DNA of 64,000 bases from positions 620,001-684,000 of the forward strand of contig NZ_PNFD01000001.1 of the NCBI RefSeq assembly GCF_003254645.1, written 5' to 3'. The stretch is from Microbacterium suaedae. GTDB lineage: Bacteria > Actinomycetota > Actinomycetes > Actinomycetales > Microbacteriaceae. Within the stretch, counting starts at the first letter, position 1, and the number at the start of each line of letters is the position of its first letter. The notes beneath the pieces are model-generated. The model was not told the origin of the DNA and did no database searches. It saw nothing but the letters and a program-made list of their open reading frames with translations. Positions 3,549-62,283 of the stretch are shown one piece after another. A program made the position numbers and the translations under genes.

Positions 3549-5375
3549 ATGCCCACACATCGATATGCCGGATCCCCTTTCCCCGCGCTCGCGACAGGGA
3601 TCACCCTGCTCGGCCTTCTCACCCTCGGTGCCTCCGCACCCTCGTACGCGGCCGATGAACTGGTCGTCGACGGCGTGAGCTACGGGCTCTTCGACCCGGA
3701 GGATCCGTCGCAGGGAGTCTCCGCCGACGCTTATGACCCCGCCGCCAACCCGGGGCACCCGGAGGTGGTGATCCCGTCCGTGGTGGAGATCGACGGGCAG
3801 ACGGCGCCCGTGGTCGAGGTGGGAGAGGGGGCATTCCGAGAGGCCGGAATCGCTTCGGCGACCGTCCCGGATTCCGTCGTCACGCTGAGAAGGCACGCAT
3901 TCTCGCGCAACCCGGGCCTGGAGTCCGTCCACCTCTCCGAGGGGCTCGAGCTCATCGGCACGGAGGCTTTCAGCTACGGCGCGCTGACGGAGGTCACCCT
4001 CCCCGATTCGCTGTCTGTGATCCACCCTCAGGCGTTCTTGTCGAACAAACTGACCGACATCATCATTCCGCCTCAGGTGGACACCTTGGCGACGGGAGTC
4101 TTTCGGCGAAACTCCCTGACGCAGATCGATATTCCCGCGCACGTCACGAAGATCCGACAGAGCGTTTTCGCGGAGAATCCCCTCACGCAGGTGACGCTCC
4201 CTGAAGAGCTCATCGAGATGGGCCCCGGCGTGTTCACCGGCATTCGGACGCTGGAAACCGTGCGCTTCCTGGGGCCAGAACCAGCCTTCGTCAATCCCGA
4301 CACGAGTCAGCCGCCGGAGCAGACGAATCCGATCGCCTCCGGTACATGGTCCAACCCCCGCATCGAATTCCTGTGGCGCCACGGCGAAGCTCAGGCAAGC
4401 TCCGGAGGCTTCACCACACCCCAGTGGTACGGATACGACAGCGTGCCGTTGGCGGAAGTGACATTCATCCCCGGGGGCGAATCCGATGTTTCCACTACCC
4501 GATTTGCGCCGCTCGATCAGCACGGGGCCGAAGGCCCCTGGGGCACCCTCGCTGCCAGCGACATGCCGGATGAGCCCACGCGCCCTGGACACGAGTTCGC
4601 CCTCTGGCACGAATACGGCGTCCCCTGGGCTCCCGGCGACCCGATCACGGCCGACCTCACTTTGAACGCCAGCTGGATCGACCTGGCCCAGGTGCAGAAC
4701 ATCGTTCTCACTGCCGCACCGGACGAGGCGATCGTGGGCGAGCCCGTCACTCTGACCGCTGAGGCGTTCAACGCCCACGGCGACTCGCTGGGCGATATCA
4801 CCGACGAGATCGTCTTCGACGATCCTGCCGACAGCACAATCACATTCGACGGCGACCAGGTCACGTTCGCCGAGGTCGGCGTCTTCACGATCTCGGGTGA
4901 GCACACGGGGACTGAACGCCGAGTGTCCCTCGAGATCGAGGTACGGCCTGCTCCCCCGACCATCCCCGACGAGGAGGAGCCGGCGACCCCGGAGGATCCG
5001 GCGACCCCGGAGGATCCCGCCACTCCGGACGATCCCGCCACTCCGGACGATCCCGCCACTCCGGAAGACGAAGAGCCGACCGTTCCCGAGGACACAGAGC
5101 CGACCGTCCCGGAGGAAGAACCGGCTACTTCCGAGGAGGATGAACCGTCCGCTCCCGAGGAAGAAGAACCGTCCGTCCTCGAGGACACAACGCCTGCGGC
5201 ACTCGAGGACACAGAACCGGCCGCTTCTGAGAACGCAGAACGTCAGGCTCTCGCCGCGACGGGCGCGGAGTTCACCCCATGGGCAGGAGCCGTCGGAGCA
5301 GTGTCGCTCCTCCTCGGATCGTCGCTGCTCATCGCCAATCGCCGCACACGCCGTGGAATGGAGACCACGCGATGA
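3549..5375 (+). CDS. Cell-wall-anchored leucine-rich-repeat protein with LAATG sortase motif
   Basis: A 608-residue secreted protein. Residues 1-34 form a signal peptide ending in SYAA. Residues about 85-230 are BspA-type leucine-rich repeats (LRR_5; recurrent LxxVxLPxxLxxIGxxAF patterns). An InlB-B-repeat-like segment (EVTFIPGG...TLNASW) lies near 300-380 and a bacterial-Ig-like domain near 385-470. An acidic, proline-rich spacer of repeated PATPDD/PEEEP units follows. LAATG at 568-572, a hydrophobic helix and a basic tail form a class-E-type LAxTG sorting signal. The spacer comes from an imperfect 18-bp DNA repeat. The stop overlaps the next start (ATGA), so it heads a three-gene unit with two lipoproteins. 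It is probably displayed on the wall as an adhesin or binding protein; no ligand can be inferred. Confidence 0.85.
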   Translation: MPTHRYAGSPFPALATGITLLGLLTLGASAPSYAADELVVDGVSYGLFDPEDPSQGVSADAYDPAANPGHPEVVIPSVVEIDGQTAPVVEVGEGAFREAGIASATVPDSVVTLRRHAFSRNPGLESVHLSEGLELIGTEAFSYGALTEVTLPDSLSVIHPQAFLSNKLTDIIIPPQVDTLATGVFRRNSLTQIDIPAHVTKIRQSVFAENPLTQVTLPEELIEMGPGVFTGIRTLETVRFLGPEPAFVNPDTSQPPEQTNPIASGTWSNPRIEFLWRHGEAQASSGGFTTPQWYGYDSVPLAEVTFIPGGESDVSTTRFAPLDQHGAEGPWGTLAASDMPDEPTRPGHEFALWHEYGVPWAPGDPITADLTLNASWIDLAQVQNIVLTAAPDEAIVGEPVTLTAEAFNAHGDSLGDITDEIVFDDPADSTITFDGDQVTFAEVGVFTISGEHTGTERRVSLEIEVRPAPPTIPDEEEPATPEDPATPEDPATPDDPATPDDPATPEDEEPTVPEDTEPTVPEEEPATSEEDEPSAPEEEEPSVLEDTTPAALEDTEPAASENAERQALAATGAEFTPWAGAVGAVSLLLGSSLLIANRRTRRGMETTR

Positions 5376-56707: not shown

Positions 56708-56746
56708 GACGAAGGGCGTGAGAAACGAACTGGTGACAGGTTCGGT

Positions 56747-57622
56747 CTAGGCCGCGAGTGTGAGCGGCTCGGCTAGCTTGGCTTCGAACTCGAAGGGCGT
56801 CAACCCGCCGAGGGTGTCCTGAGATCGTTGGCGGTGGTACTTCCGCTCGATCCAGACGACGATGGCAAGCCGCAGCTCATGCCGCGTCGACCACCGTTGC
56901 TGGTTGAGCACGTTTGTCTGCAGCAACGACCAGAACGACTCCATGGCCGCGTTGTCTCCTGCAGCGCCGACGCGGCCCATCGATCCGACCATGTCGTGGC
57001 GGCGAAGCTCGCGGGCAACCGCTCGACTTCGAAATTGACTGCCGCGATCGGCATGCAGGGTGCATCCGGCGATATCACCGCGGCGAACGACGGCGTTTCG
57101 GACGGCGTCGACGGCGAGCTTCGCGGTCATCCGGTCCGAGATCGAGTAGCCGACGATGCGGTTGGAGAACACGTCTTTGATCGCGCAGCAGTAGAGCTTG
57201 CCTTCGCCCGTCCAATGCTCCGTGATGTCCGTGAGCCAGAGACGGTTCGGAGCATCGGCACGGAACACACGTTGGACGTGATCGTCGAACACGGGCGGGC
57301 CCACCTTCTTGCCCTTGCCACGCCGACGGCGCTGCGCGGACGAGAGAATCCCGGACTGCGAACACAGCTTCCACGCCGTCCGCCGACTCATCCGCCACCC
57401 TGCCCGCCGCGCCTCGTCGGTCAGGTATCGGTAGCCGAACGTCGGGTCGTCCGCATGAGCATCGTGGAGCGCGTTGATCCGATACGCGCGGACCAGGTCC
57501 GCCTCGCGGATCGGGTCATTCCGCCACCGGTAGTAGGGCTGCCTTGCGAGCTTGAGCACCCGGCACGACACCGTCACGGTGATCCCCGCGACGGCGAGCT
57601 CAGCAACGAGCGGGTATGTCAT
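56747..57622 (-). CDS. IS3-family transposase OrfB (catalytic)
   Basis: The 291-residue product has an N-terminal HTH_21-like region (LHDAHADDPTFGYRYLTDEA). The rve integrase core has D132 (WLTDITEHW), D192 (LHADRGSQF) and E228 (AAMESFW), the D-D(35)-E spacing of IS3. Its ATG overlaps the orfA stop as ATGA, after a run of four A that could allow frameshifting. The frame is intact. Confidence 0.93.
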   Translation of the reverse strand: MTYPLVAELAVAGITVTVSCRVLKLARQPYYRWRNDPIREADLVRAYRINALHDAHADDPTFGYRYLTDEARRAGWRMSRRTAWKLCSQSGILSSAQRRRRGKGKKVGPPVFDDHVQRVFRADAPNRLWLTDITEHWTGEGKLYCCAIKDVFSNRIVGYSISDRMTAKLAVDAVRNAVVRRGDIAGCTLHADRGSQFRSRAVARELRRHDMVGSMGRVGAAGDNAAMESFWSLLQTNVLNQQRWSTRHELRLAIVVWIERKYHRQRSQDTLGGLTPFEFEAKLAEPLTLAA

Positions 57623-57924
57623 TTTGGGGAGCCACCGAGCTTGAGGTTCGCTTGCGACAGATACGCCGCAGCCCTCCTGAGCACCTCGTGATCCTGATCG
57701 AGCAACCGAATCCGCTTCTTGAGTTCTCGGGCCTCCGCGGCGTCGGCCGCGGTCTGGCCTGGACGGTTACCGTTCTCGACATCAGCTTGGCGGAGCCAGT
57801 TCTGCAACGTCGCTTCGCTGATCCCGAAGTCGGTCGCGATCTGTTTGATAGTGACGCCGCTCTCACGGCTACGAGCAACCGCGACAACGTCCTCGCGGAA
57901 CTCCTTGGGGTATGGACCAGGCAT
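57619..57924 (-). CDS. IS3-family transposase OrfA
   Basis: 101 residues from ATG 57924 (MPGPYPKEFREDVVAVARSR). The HTH_Tnp_1 helix-turn-helix (GVTIKQIATDFGISEATLQN) is followed by a leucine-zipper region (LKKRIRLLDQDHEVLRRAAA). It is intact. Confidence 0.92.
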   Translation of the reverse strand: MPGPYPKEFREDVVAVARSRESGVTIKQIATDFGISEATLQNWLRQADVENGNRPGQTAADAAEARELKKRIRLLDQDHEVLRRAAAYLSQANLKLGGSPK

Positions 57925-58006
57925 GATGACATCCTCCCCGCCAACGCCTCCCAGCACTAACGATCAATCGTCACCGATCCGTTCCTCACGCCCCATCGAG
58001 GTCGAG

Positions 58007-58340: not shown

Positions 58341-59315
58341 TCATGATGGTGAGGTGGGCGATGGCGAAGTCTGACGCAAAGCGCTGTCAGCCGCCGACGG
58401 TCGTATGGGGTGCGAGATTCTTTTCCCGAACGACAGGCCCCGCTGCTCATCCGGTCGAAGAAGCAGTAGGATATCGGCGGCGATCATCACGGCCGAGAAC
58501 GACCACAGTCCCATGACGATCGCAATCGCTCCATGAAACGCAATGCCTAGAATCAGCAGTACCTGTCGAGCTCGTCGACGCATGAATGGTCCGGCGACCA
58601 ACGCCAGTTGAAGAACAAGCGTTCCATAGCTGGCGATGATTGATATGACAGGAAACTGGAACACTAGTAGCGTGAGTGAGCGTATCGGTTCAGCAGGCCC
58701 GAAGGTGGGATTCTGCAACCAATACCAAAGGGCGGAACCGTCGGCCCATTCAGTGACAGCCATCTTCGCGATCGATGCCTGCAGGTAGACGCCCATCAGC
58801 TGAACTATCCACAATCCGAGGCATGCGTAGGCAATGTACTTAGCCACGAGGCTCGTTGACCGATATTGGTCGTCTCGTCGCCAGTGGGTCAACCGACCAT
58901 CAAACAAGCAGAATGGGATGAGGATCAGGGTGAGGTTGGATGCAAGGTGATCACCGCCATCGGGCAGCGGGCTACCCGCTGCGAGACTCCAGGTGAGATA
59001 CCAATGAGGAATGCAGGTCCACCGCGGCAGCACCCCGATGGCGGCGATGAACAACACGCCGATGGCAACGATCACAGACCAAGTGGGTACACCTTGGTCC
59101 GCAGTGAGGCAGAAGAAGGACAGGCTGGTCGCTTCAGTGCTACACGTCACCCCGTCCGGATAGTTCTCGCTTCGAAAGAACAGCTGGCTGCTCGGGGTGA
59201 ATGTCAAGGTGATGGCCGTGGATAAAGCCAGGATCGTTCGCGCAGTGCCGACGACTGGGGTGAACGGAGACGTTCTCGCGATGTAGCGATCGAGTTTCTG
59301 CGTCAGAGAAGTCAC
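58341..59315 (-). CDS. sdpB: SdpB-family membrane protein (SDP toxin maturation)
   Basis: About 324 residues from GTG 59315, overlapping the sdpA stop (GTGA). It has about seven to eight membrane helices of the HTTM (vitamin K-carboxylase-like) type, with the family pattern ARTILALSTAITLTFTPSSQ at the start, then YLTWSLAAGSPLPDGGDHLA and a conserved QASIAKMAVTEWADGSALWY. In Bacillus, SdpA and SdpB are needed to process SdpC into the active SDP peptide. It is the last gene of the C-A-B unit. Confidence 0.85.
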   Translation of the reverse strand: MTSLTQKLDRYIARTSPFTPVVGTARTILALSTAITLTFTPSSQLFFRSENYPDGVTCSTEATSLSFFCLTADQGVPTWSVIVAIGVLFIAAIGVLPRWTCIPHWYLTWSLAAGSPLPDGGDHLASNLTLILIPFCLFDGRLTHWRRDDQYRSTSLVAKYIAYACLGLWIVQLMGVYLQASIAKMAVTEWADGSALWYWLQNPTFGPAEPIRSLTLLVFQFPVISIIASYGTLVLQLALVAGPFMRRRARQVLLILGIAFHGAIAIVMGLWSFSAVMIAADILLLLRPDEQRGLSFGKRISHPIRPSAADSALRQTSPSPTSPS

Positions 59316-59950
59316 GACAGTAGCTCGCAATCAACGTCAAGAATCATACCGGACAATTCGGGTTTCCCTCCAAACCTGGCGTAGGAAAGCGGCACAGGAT
59401 CTTCCCTGATAAGCGCGATACGCTCGCAAAGTCGAAGGTCATACCCGGCCACGTTCGAAGCAAGGATCGGGCCAGACTCAAGTGTCTGAGCAATACAATC
59501 GAGCTCGGAGACTGTGCCGCACGAGACCCACTCCGGTGTCCCCTCCGCTCCAGATACAACCCCTTCGACATCGAACTCGGTGAGGCGGCCTTCGCGGTTC
59601 GCCCCGAACGCATACTGCGGCTGCACATTTGGGCCGCGTTTCGCGTTCACCCATTCATTGTTGACCCCCTCTGTGTAGGGCGTCACCGAAGGTTCGCGCG
59701 GGTCTCGCGTAAAGAACCCCCACCCTTGCGGAACGACGGACTGAACTACTGCCAGCCCGCCGTTCCACGAGCGAGGCGTATGCACTTGGGCGGGCAGCGA
59801 CGTCACCGCGATGACTGCAACGATGAGAAGTGTTGCCACCAGTACGGTGTTCCTGATCATTGCCGAACCCTCGGCAGCTTGCTGAGGCGCCGAGTTGTCG
59901 ACGGTCTCGTCATTGGTGGCGTTGCTCAATTCGTCGTTCTCCCCGCCCAT
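59312..59950 (-). CDS. sdpA: SdpA-family protein (SDP toxin maturation)
   Basis: About 212 residues from ATG 59950, 16 bp after the sdpC stop; ATG 59860 behind GAGGG would give 182. After an acidic N-terminus there is one membrane helix. An extracytoplasmic domain with the family hallmark VVPQGWGFFTRDPREP near its start and C-terminal LCERIALIREDPVPLSYARF follows. It acts with SdpB in the export and maturation of the toxin. Confidence 0.85.
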   Translation of the reverse strand: MGGENDELSNATNDETVDNSAPQQAAEGSAMIRNTVLVATLLIVAVIAVTSLPAQVHTPRSWNGGLAVVQSVVPQGWGFFTRDPREPSVTPYTEGVNNEWVNAKRGPNVQPQYAFGANREGRLTEFDVEGVVSGAEGTPEWVSCGTVSELDCIAQTLESGPILASNVAGYDLRLCERIALIREDPVPLSYARFGGKPELSGMILDVDCELLS

Positions 59951-59966
59951 GGTGCGCACGCAGATG

Positions 59967-60599
59967 TCAGTCGCGTGCCGCGACTGTGACCTCGGCCACG
60001 AACTGCTCCTGTGCAGCACGCGAGTTCTGGGTTGTCACAGCCGCGGAGTTCGCAGTGCAATCGACCCACCAGGCACCACAGGCGACCGCGGCGCCTACGA
60101 CGGCGCCCGCGAGTGCCGTGAGGGCGACCGTGTTGTGGACTGCAACCGCTGCATAGGCGACGCAGACGACTGCAACACCGCACGCCTGGGGGGTCACGCC
60201 CTGTTCCTCAGCTACAGCGGCCAGCGCCTCCTCGCCGACAGTCTCTTCCGCATGCGCCATATAGGTCTCAGCGAGACCATCGAGACCAGCGTCCACGCGA
60301 TTGATGTCGCCGCTGCGGATGTCGTTCGCGTATCCGGCGACGGCGTCGCTCTCTGCGTCGAGGAACTCATCGAGCGCTTCTTCGATCCCCTGTTCGTATT
60401 CAGCGCGTACCGCCGAGTCTTCGATGACGACCTCGTTGTTCACCTCGCTCGCAAACTCGCCGTTGCCGAAGAGAAGTCCCTGGACAACTTCCCGGTCAGT
60501 GGGCTCTGTGGTGTTGGCGGTTGCCGCAGTGATGCCGCCGCCCCCGACGAGCACCACTGCAGCAGCCGCTATTGTCGCCAGTTTGTTTCGAACCTTCAT
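59967..60599 (-). CDS. sdpC: SdpC-family antimicrobial peptide precursor
   Basis: 210 residues, starting at ATG 60599 behind GGAGA. Residues 1-28 are a signal peptide (MKVRNKLATIAAAAVVLVGG...). Residues 30-138 are an acidic helical pro-region. The hydrophobic core begins at Cys140 with CGVAVVCVAYAAVAVHNTVA. This matches Bacillus SDP (CGxxxVCVA, then N-x-VAL-x-TA), whose two cysteines form a six-residue-spaced disulfide. Two further cysteines (174, 181) and an Ala/Gln-rich tail follow. It is the first gene of the operon. It is predicted to give a secreted, pore-forming peptide of about 42 residues that kills related cells. Confidence 0.88.
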   Translation of the reverse strand: MKVRNKLATIAAAAVVLVGGGGITAATANTTEPTDREVVQGLLFGNGEFASEVNNEVVIEDSAVRAEYEQGIEEALDEFLDAESDAVAGYANDIRSGDINRVDAGLDGLAETYMAHAEETVGEEALAAVAEEQGVTPQACGVAVVCVAYAAVAVHNTVALTALAGAVVGAAVACGAWWVDCTANSAAVTTQNSRAAQEQFVAEVTVAARD

Positions 60600-60713: not shown

Positions 60714-61733
60714 TCAGGTCGTAGGGAGCTTAGGAACGGATGCGCGAAGCACAGCCGCGGCATCGTCAGCGTTAGGTAGCGACACAATGAGATCGGCGTC
60801 CGGCTTCTGCGTTTGCACACGCAGCACTGGGCCGGAGTTCATGAGGATCGCGCGACTGCCATCATTGAGCAACCGGAACCCTCGGCCGGCTCCGGTCGGC
60901 GGTGTGCCGGTGCTGATCGCGGTGATCCGGTCGGCATCGATCCGACACAACGTCGTCCCCAATCCAGTGCGGACCCGGACACCGCGAGCACTCGCGGTCA
61001 CGCGGATGCGTCGGAGCGTGAAAGCCGTCAAGACAGCCAGCACCGCAACGGTCGCGAGGATCCAGGTCCACCAGCTCGAAGGCCTTGTCGCGACCAGGTA
61101 TGCGCCACAGGCGAGCGATGCGGTCGCGATGAACCAGAGAACGAGGCGGGCTTCCGTCTTCAGCGGCACAGTGCGGGACCAGACAAGACGTTCACCAGAC
61201 GCAACCTCGAGGCGCGCGGTCGCATCCTCTGTCGGTGATGCAGAGACGGAGTTCGCATCAGGCCGAGGCGCGACGACGACCCCGGCGACGGCCAGCAGTG
61301 CCGCGACGCCGGCGCCAACGCCGGCCCACGCCCCCATCCCCACGATCGGGTCGCCGGGCTCCAGGCCGCGCTGCAGGTACAGCGCCGCGGTCAGGCACGT
61401 GGCGAAGAAGCCGATGGTCGCCCACAGAATCGCTACGATAAATCGCAGATTCGTGGGAGGGACACCCTCTGCTGAGCGGGCGAACGACACGGTGATGGGT
61501 ACGCTGATCAACGCGGTGAATCCGGCCACGAGTCCGCCGGTCAGGGCCGGGAGGATCCACGCGGGCCCGAAGCCGTCTGGCCCGTCCGCTCCCCAGTTCA
61601 CTGCCACCTGCGTTGGCACGTCCGGGAGTATGAAGAGTTGCGCAGCAACCGCAATCGCTCCAATACCGAGCGGTACAGCGATCCCTGCGACGACGAAGCG
61701 TCTCACTGCACGTCGGTGACCAGCATCGATCAT
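60714..61733 (-). CDS. DUF1648-domain membrane protein, candidate SDP immunity factor
   Basis: 339 residues, with AGGGACG before ATG 61733. The N-terminal domain is DUF1648-like (FILPDVPTQVAVNWGADGPDGFG), the domain that also forms the start of SdpI immunity proteins. Further membrane helices and a C-terminal bacterial PH-like domain (LRRIRVTASARGVRVRTGLG) follow. DUF1648/GntR pairs also occur without SDP genes in Actinobacteria. The immunity role therefore rests on position, 114 bp upstream of sdpC on the same strand. Confidence 0.7.
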   Translation of the reverse strand: MIDAGHRRAVRRFVVAGIAVPLGIGAIAVAAQLFILPDVPTQVAVNWGADGPDGFGPAWILPALTGGLVAGFTALISVPITVSFARSAEGVPPTNLRFIVAILWATIGFFATCLTAALYLQRGLEPGDPIVGMGAWAGVGAGVAALLAVAGVVVAPRPDANSVSASPTEDATARLEVASGERLVWSRTVPLKTEARLVLWFIATASLACGAYLVATRPSSWWTWILATVAVLAVLTAFTLRRIRVTASARGVRVRTGLGTTLCRIDADRITAISTGTPPTGAGRGFRLLNDGSRAILMNSGPVLRVQTQKPDADLIVSLPNADDAAAVLRASVPKLPTT

Positions 61734-61791: not shown

Positions 61792-62172
61792 TCATGTGTG
61801 TTGGACAACTCCACCCAGCTGCGAATGGTGCGAAGCCATAATGTCCATGATCTGTTGACGACTGAGACCCAGCGTCGCCGCCTTCTGCACCGTCTGATCG
61901 ATCAGCGCAGACAACTCGACGAAGGCCGGCGACGGCTCCGCACATACACGCGTCCCCCGGCCCCGCCGCATCTCAATCAACCCTTCATCGCGCAACATGC
62001 CGTAGGCACGCAGGACGGTGTGGAGATTGACGTCCAGATCAGACGCAACCTCGCGCGCAGGCGGAAGTCGCTCACCGGCATCCAGTTCGCCCGTGGCGAT
62101 GCTCCGGCGGATCTGCACCGCGATCTGGATCCCCAAGGGGACCGAGCTCGCGTCGTCGACCCGGATCAACAT
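61792..62172 (-). CDS. GntR-family (YtrA-type) transcriptional regulator
   Basis: The 126-residue product has a winged helix (GELDAGERLPPAREVASDLD..., VNLHTVLRAYGMLRDEGLIE) with a short helical tail, as in YtrA-type repressors. It lies 58 bp upstream of the DUF1648 gene on the same strand and probably controls it, perhaps with the sdp genes. A TAACTT hexamer 7 nt before the ATG suggests a leaderless start. The inverted repeat at 62172-62193 covers this promoter. Confidence 0.85.
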   Translation of the reverse strand: MLIRVDDASSVPLGIQIAVQIRRSIATGELDAGERLPPAREVASDLDVNLHTVLRAYGMLRDEGLIEMRRGRGTRVCAEPSPAFVELSALIDQTVQKAATLGLSRQQIMDIMASHHSQLGGVVQHT

Positions 62173-62193
62173 GTTCTAGAAGTTAGCAGAACA
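62172..62193. promoter_or_regulatory. Candidate GntR operator at the regulator's own promoter
   Basis: A perfect inverted repeat TGTTCT-N10-AGAACA that spans the -10-like TAACTT and touches the ATG. This geometry would let the regulator block its own transcription. Confidence 0.55.
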
Positions 62194-62283
62194 AGTAGAT
62201 CCAATGGAAGGTTTCAAGCACGAGCTCGCCCGGATCGTGCGCAGAAAGGTCTCATGCAGAGTAGCGCGACGACTGTCGCTGGC

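What the first reader, a model, noticed from the sequence alone, without database searches (positions are those of the whole stretch)
60054..60182. SDP-like peptide core with conserved disulfide cysteines plus a second cysteine pair
Cys140 and Cys146 in CGVAVVC sit at almost the same precursor position and the exact spacing of the Bacillus SDP disulfide, followed by matching N-x-VAL-x-TA. Unlike SDP there are also Cys174 and Cys181 near the end of the predicted peptide. A second loop would make a doubly bridged variant.
Basis: partly seen in the sequence, partly recalled or inferred. Interest (0 to 1): 0.72.

Follow-up and report, generated by a model that had tools for sequence, protein, structure and literature searches.

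The report
Doubly bridged SDP-like bacteriocin precursor
A soil-type actinobacterium (Microbacterium) carries a relative of the Bacillus 'cannibalism' peptide SDP whose predicted toxin has two pairs of cysteines instead of one, and because the extra pair is kept by seven relatives and is missing only as a whole in two others, it very probably forms a second disulfide loop.

Summary
The window is from Microbacterium; minus-strand 59967-60599 encodes a 210-aa SdpC-type precursor with Cys140, 146, 174 and 181 and no other Cys. It heads a sdpC-sdpA-sdpB operon; SdpA and SdpB pass NCBIfam cut-offs, SdpC is homologous (E 1.7e-12) but below its cut-off. B. subtilis SdpC, fetched here, has Cys141/147: same spacing, one residue apart. 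Seven related loci (Microbacterium, Cellulomonas, Curtobacterium, other Microbacteriaceae) keep all four Cys, with pair-to-pair spacing constant at 27 in the intact ones. The conserved block begins sharply at Cys140 and ends at the second pair: core about 72% identical, precursor about 27%, with many silent changes, so selection acts on a peptide that includes the second pair. In two nested relatives both second-pair Cys are gone while the first pair stays; never one alone. This supports a Cys174-Cys181 bond and a doubly bridged SDP subfamily. All four-Cys loci also carry a membrane protein with a PH-like domain beside the operon, a candidate immunity factor distinct from SdpI. Bonds, processing, toxicity and immunity are inferred, not shown. 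New variant of a known kind.

The parts
59967..60599 (-). sdpC-like gene: 210-aa precursor (N-terminal signal-like segment, helical pro-domain, hydrophobic core, C-terminal tail)
   Evidence: TIGR04032 E 1.7e-12, 47.6 bits over profile 2-171/172, below cut-off 99.2; AlphaFold model confident (pLDDT about 90) only for residues 31-120
60057..60182 (-). predicted mature peptide CGVAVVCVAYAAVAVHNTVALTALAGAVVGAAVACGAWWVDC (residues 140-181)
   Evidence: sharp conservation block in 9 relatives; alignment to B. subtilis SDP
60162..60182 (-). first Cys pair Cys140-Cys146 (CX5C), as in SDP
   Evidence: invariant in 9 aligned relatives
60057..60080 (-). second Cys pair Cys174-Cys181 (CX6C; CX5C in all relatives)
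   Evidence: both absent in L130 and L131
59312..59950 (-). sdpA
   Evidence: TIGR04034 63.9 bits, above cut-off 53.1; PF17418 57.4 bits, above 25
58341..59330 (-). sdpB (start overlaps sdpA stop)
   Evidence: TIGR04033 196.6 bits, above cut-off 178.4
60714..61733 (-). DUF1648 membrane protein with 2TM plus PH-like C-terminal domain: candidate immunity/sensor protein
   Evidence: PF07853 E 5e-5, below cut-off; family found in 36 of 76 sdp loci; model shows two helices and an 8-strand barrel plus helix at 193-332
61792..62172 (-). GntR-family regulator, first gene of the cluster
   Evidence: PF00392 E 6e-16; homologues beside the DUF1648 gene in most loci that have them
62163..62202 (.). inverted repeat GGATCTACTTGTTCT-N10-AGAACATGTTGATCC over the gntR start: candidate autoregulatory operator
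   Evidence: inference for function

Best explanation
The locus makes an SDP-type membrane-active bacteriocin with two disulfide loops. SdpC is exported (signal-like N-terminus), SdpA and SdpB are needed to mature it, and a hydrophobic helical-hairpin peptide of about 42 residues (Cys140 to about Cys181) is released. Cys140-Cys146 close the SDP-type N-terminal loop; Cys174-Cys181 close a second loop at the C-terminus, where SDP instead has a cationic WKYVAKYSS end. By analogy with SDP it collapses the proton motive force of sensitive Gram-positive cells. Self-protection is most likely given by the adjacent membrane protein with the PH-like domain (DUF1648 fusion here), transcribed with a GntR repressor that may act as SdpR does for SdpI. 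Shown: genes, cysteines, conservation, joint presence or absence of the second pair. Inferred: bonds, cleavage, toxicity, immunity.
For: Operon and profile hits. Direct comparison with B. subtilis SdpC. Four-Cys homologues in 7 other loci; Cys gaps 5,27,5 in the six intact ones, 5,27,6 in the window and 5,33,5 in L100. Both second-pair Cys replaced together in L130 (AGAWLWG) and L131 (TGKWVWM) while CX5C stays. SdpA+SdpB tree puts four-Cys and these two-Cys members in one clade with support 100/100, the two-Cys pair nested (93.4/89). Core identical 40/40 in three Microbacterium while 10-22 of those codons differ silently; window vs Microbacterium relatives core 0.72, precursor about 0.27. Block edges at Cys140 and at the second pair. 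VKOR present for extracytoplasmic disulfides. PH-like protein next to all 8 four-Cys systems.
Against: No experimental data. The joint loss is probably one event on the tree, so it is one observation of covariation. SdpC is below the curated TIGR04032 cut-off. The AlphaFold core has pLDDT about 41-58, so it says nothing on the bonds. The window's own second pair has an extra residue and lacks the Trp before Cys174, so it is the outlier of the group. In B. subtilis, as I recall, the SDP disulfide is not needed for activity.
Confidence: 0.66

Rival explanations
1. Both bonds exist but are crossed: Cys140-Cys181 and Cys146-Cys174 staple the two helices of a hairpin at its open end.
For: The model gives helices 143-153 and 158-178 with a break at His155-Asn156, so a hairpin would bring the two pairs together.
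Against: The first pair exists alone in SDP, L107 and the two-Cys relatives, so it can pair with itself; Cys 3 and 4 go together while 1 and 2 stay. Core model is low confidence.
Confidence: 0.15
2. The second pair is in the precursor but not in the mature peptide, or stays reduced; the active peptide is an ordinary single-loop SDP.
For: Two-Cys relatives with closely related SdpA/SdpB exist, so the pair is not needed for maturation in general; the window's pair is irregular.
Against: The conserved block runs through the second pair and decays just after it, at the position where SDP ends; the pair is kept across Microbacterium, Cellulomonas and Curtobacterium.
Confidence: 0.14
3. The operon is a decaying remnant or not a toxin (for example a signal peptide system).
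For: Sporadic: 4 of 369 genomes of the genus at strong E-values; an IS3-type element lies directly downstream; SdpC is below the curated cut-off.
Against: All three genes are intact with purifying selection on the core, plus the linked regulator and candidate immunity gene; sporadic presence is usual for bacteriocins.
Confidence: 0.08

Closest known systems
SDP (sdpABC-sdpRI) of Bacillus subtilis
   Same: SdpA, SdpB, exported precursor with pro-domain motif GLLFGxGE, CX5C at the start of a hydrophobic core of about 42 aa, N-x-VAL motif
   Different: second Cys pair in place of the Lys-containing C-terminus; gene order C-A-B instead of A-B-C; no SdpI (PF13630)/SdpR next door but a DUF1648-PH-like protein and a GntR regulator
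YIT (yitPOM-yitQ) of B. subtilis (PMC6818787)
   Same: paralogous SDP-type system with its own, SdpI-unrelated membrane immunity protein
   Different: the YitM-like SdpC paralogue read here (L127) has no Cys
sdp-like clusters noted in Brevibacterium (PMC5719810) and SdpC homologues in Streptomyces (PMC3924187)
   Same: actinobacterial sdp systems
   Different: the passages read there name weak sdpABC homology or SdpC homologues; no cysteine pairs or immunity genes described in those passages
Two-Cys sister group, G1482 (L134) and G1497 (L135)
   Same: same SdpA/SdpB clade and nearly same core
   Different: second pair absent; G1482 carries an SdpI-family protein (PF13630, 41.2 bits) and a DCC1-like oxidoreductase instead of the PH-like protein

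Membership tests
TIGR04032 SdpC toxin subfamily | score above curated cut-off (99.2 bits) | tested here: not met
   47.6 bits, E 1.7e-12, full length; three four-Cys homologues scored 38-53 bits
SDP-type systems (sdpABC) | adjacent SdpA and SdpB above curated cut-offs | tested here: met
   63.9 vs 53.1 and 196.6 vs 178.4 bits
SDP-type systems (sdpABC) | CX5C at the start of a hydrophobic C-terminal core of about 42 aa | tested here: met
SDP-type systems (sdpABC) | exported precursor | not tested
   N-terminus MKVRNKLATIAAAAVVLVGGGG looks like a signal peptide; no predictor was run
SDP-type systems (sdpABC) | proteolytic release of a disulfide-bonded toxic peptide | not testable with these tools
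   needs mass spectrometry and a killing assay
SDP proper (sdpABC-sdpRI) | linked SdpI (PF13630) immunity protein and SdpR | tested here: not met
   neighbour has weak DUF1648 only and no PF13630; regulator is GntR; B. subtilis SdpI has both domains

The most novel reading that the evidence does not exclude
A distinct subfamily of doubly bridged SDP-type bacteriocins exists in Micrococcales-type actinobacteria, protected by a previously unrecognised immunity family (two membrane helices plus PH-like domain, motif FGGWGIKGS) that replaces SdpI.
Probability: 0.5. Interest if true: 0.62.

Novelty: new variant of a known kind. Interest (0 to 1): 0.5.

Why it matters
SDP is the best-studied member of its family. 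A natural variant with a second loop, with close natural relatives that lack only that loop, gives a ready experiment on what the disulfides do (stability, target range, immunity recognition). The four-Cys SdpC proteins tested here score below the NCBIfam cut-off, so they are probably annotated as hypothetical. The linked PH-like membrane protein, present in about half of the sdp loci examined, is a testable candidate for immunity in actinobacterial systems.

Tried and rejected
Second SdpC-like hit in the same genome (C6, L015): Ala/Thr-rich low-complexity stretch of an HNH-type protein, rejected. Second SdpB-like hit (C9, L013): weak (66.6 bits), distant HTTM-like, not pursued. No SdpC relative in plasmids or phages; no SdpB relative in viral contigs. 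No solved structure by sequence or fold (nothing below E 0.9). PH-like fold: best PDB match E 8.5e-3 (p22phox complex chain), then GRK2, Sin1 and other PH-containing chains at E about 0.1-1, suggestive only. A leftover of the short PH-like gene downstream of the window's sdpB was sought and not found. Sigma-70 promoter and terminator scan gave no more than shuffles. The original SDP papers (Liu 2010, Perez Morales 2013) were not held, so facts on the SDP bond rest on general knowledge.

Full report
Check of the observation. Minus-strand ORF 59967-60599 encodes 210 residues with Cys at 140, 146, 174 and 181 only. Four Cys in 42 residues is unlikely at the local Cys frequency of 0.9% (P about 5e-4). 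The first pair has the same spacing and position within one residue, and VTP-x-CG...VCVA and N-x-VAL-(x)-TA are shared; the Asn lies two residues nearer and the x before TA is missing in the window.

Surroundings. Contigs of near genomes that also appear under organism names place the window in Microbacterium. On the minus strand the order is gntR (61792-62172), a DUF1648 membrane protein (60714-61733), sdpC, sdpA (59312-59950), sdpB (58341-59330). SdpA and SdpB pass the curated cut-offs, SdpC does not but matches over the full profile. GC content is 0.59-0.60 over sdpA/sdpB against about 0.65 nearby, and an IS3-type element with 24-nt inverted ends (56714-57993) lies just downstream, so recent arrival is possible.

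Homologues. A genus search (369 genomes) found three close SdpC homologues, all with four Cys. A scan of 84,980 species with SdpB gave 66 loci; reading the gene upstream of SdpA in each and searching family and order gave the four-Cys set: three Microbacterium, Cellulomonas timonensis, Curtobacterium sp. ER1/6, Microbacteriaceae PS02332 and G837 (the last with an in-frame TAG in the pro-region). Cys gaps are 5,27,5 in the six intact ones, 5,27,6 in the window and 5,33,5 in G837. Other SdpC proteins in the set have none, one, two or, rarely, three Cys in this region, and none has this pattern.

The second pair behaves as a unit. Two relatives, G1482 (L130) and G1497 (L131), keep CGAAVVC and the VHN motif but have AGAWLWG and TGKWVWM where the others have CGAWxWC. 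With the window that makes eight with both, two with none, none with one. On a tree of SdpA plus SdpB (443 columns, IQ-TREE) all ten form one clade (SH-aLRT 100, bootstrap 100); the two-Cys pair are sisters (91.1/88) nested inside (93.4/89). The simplest reading is one joint loss, so the covariation counts once.

The core is the selected product. Window against its four-Cys relatives: core identity 0.62-0.79, pro-region 0.24-0.36; three Microbacterium cores are identical over 40 residues although 10-22 of these codons differ silently. Column conservation jumps to 100% at Cys140 and falls just after the second pair, matching the ends of SDP. The core is hydrophobic (GRAVY 1.69) with no Lys or Arg, whereas SDP has two Lys.

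Structure. AlphaFold on 36 homologues gives a confident helical pro-domain (residues 31-120) and a poor core with helices 143-153 and 158-178. No PDB relative was found. The model does not decide which Cys pair. Crossed links in a helical hairpin remain possible.

Regulation and immunity. Homologues of the DUF1648 protein, or of its C-terminal half (two helices plus a PH-like barrel), occur in 36 of 76 sdp loci examined, and GntR homologues in 20, mostly beside it. In all seven other four-Cys loci a short form (about 150-176 aa, motif FGGWGIKGS, weaker in G837) follows sdpB directly. The two-Cys relative G1482 instead has an SdpI-family protein. B. subtilis SdpI carries DUF1648 and SdpI domains, and its helices 1-3 are reported to bind SdpC, helices 4-6 the repressor SdpR (PMC11995493, citing Ellermeier 2006). 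By analogy the window protein may sense or sequester the toxin through its DUF1648 part. A palindrome over the gntR start is a candidate operator. These roles are inferred from linkage.

Mode of action. SDP collapses the proton motive force and induces lysis (PMC6818787; PMC6027536); that the four-Cys peptides do the same is inference from homology.

Verdict. SDP-type precursor: very likely. Second pair part of the mature peptide: likely. Cys174-Cys181 disulfide: more likely than not. No published description of a doubly bridged SDP was found in the open library, which lacks most subscription papers.

Noticed in passing
56714-57993: IS3-type element with 24-nt imperfect inverted ends (83%); two overlapping ORFs (57619-57957 and 56747-57622, rve domain) as expected for orfA/orfB.
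   Followed up: partly
62163-62202: 15-nt inverted repeat over the gntR start codon, candidate autoregulatory operator.
   Followed up: partly
L092 (Chryseotalea sanaruensis), 3661-4455: Bacteroidota SdpC with only the first pair but the same CX5C-VAY-xxxAVHN half, although its SdpA/SdpB are distant: the first loop and VHN motif seem to be the shared part.
   Followed up: no
L134 4814-5230 and 8613-9320 (G1482): ORFs with nearly the same sequence flank the sdp operon, as if an island had inserted with a duplicated edge; inside lie an SdpI-family and a DCC1-like oxidoreductase gene.
   Followed up: no
L080 5514-5915, L091 5819-6220, L103 3062-3493, L106 5283-5669: DCC1-like (DUF393) thiol-disulfide oxidoreductases next to sdp operons in 9 of 76 loci, a possible dedicated disulfide factor.
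   Followed up: partly
L101 1420-2091, L046, L049, L051 and other Streptomyces/Curtobacterium loci: Many actinobacterial SdpC cores have exactly one Cys, which could give dimers or another modification.
   Followed up: no
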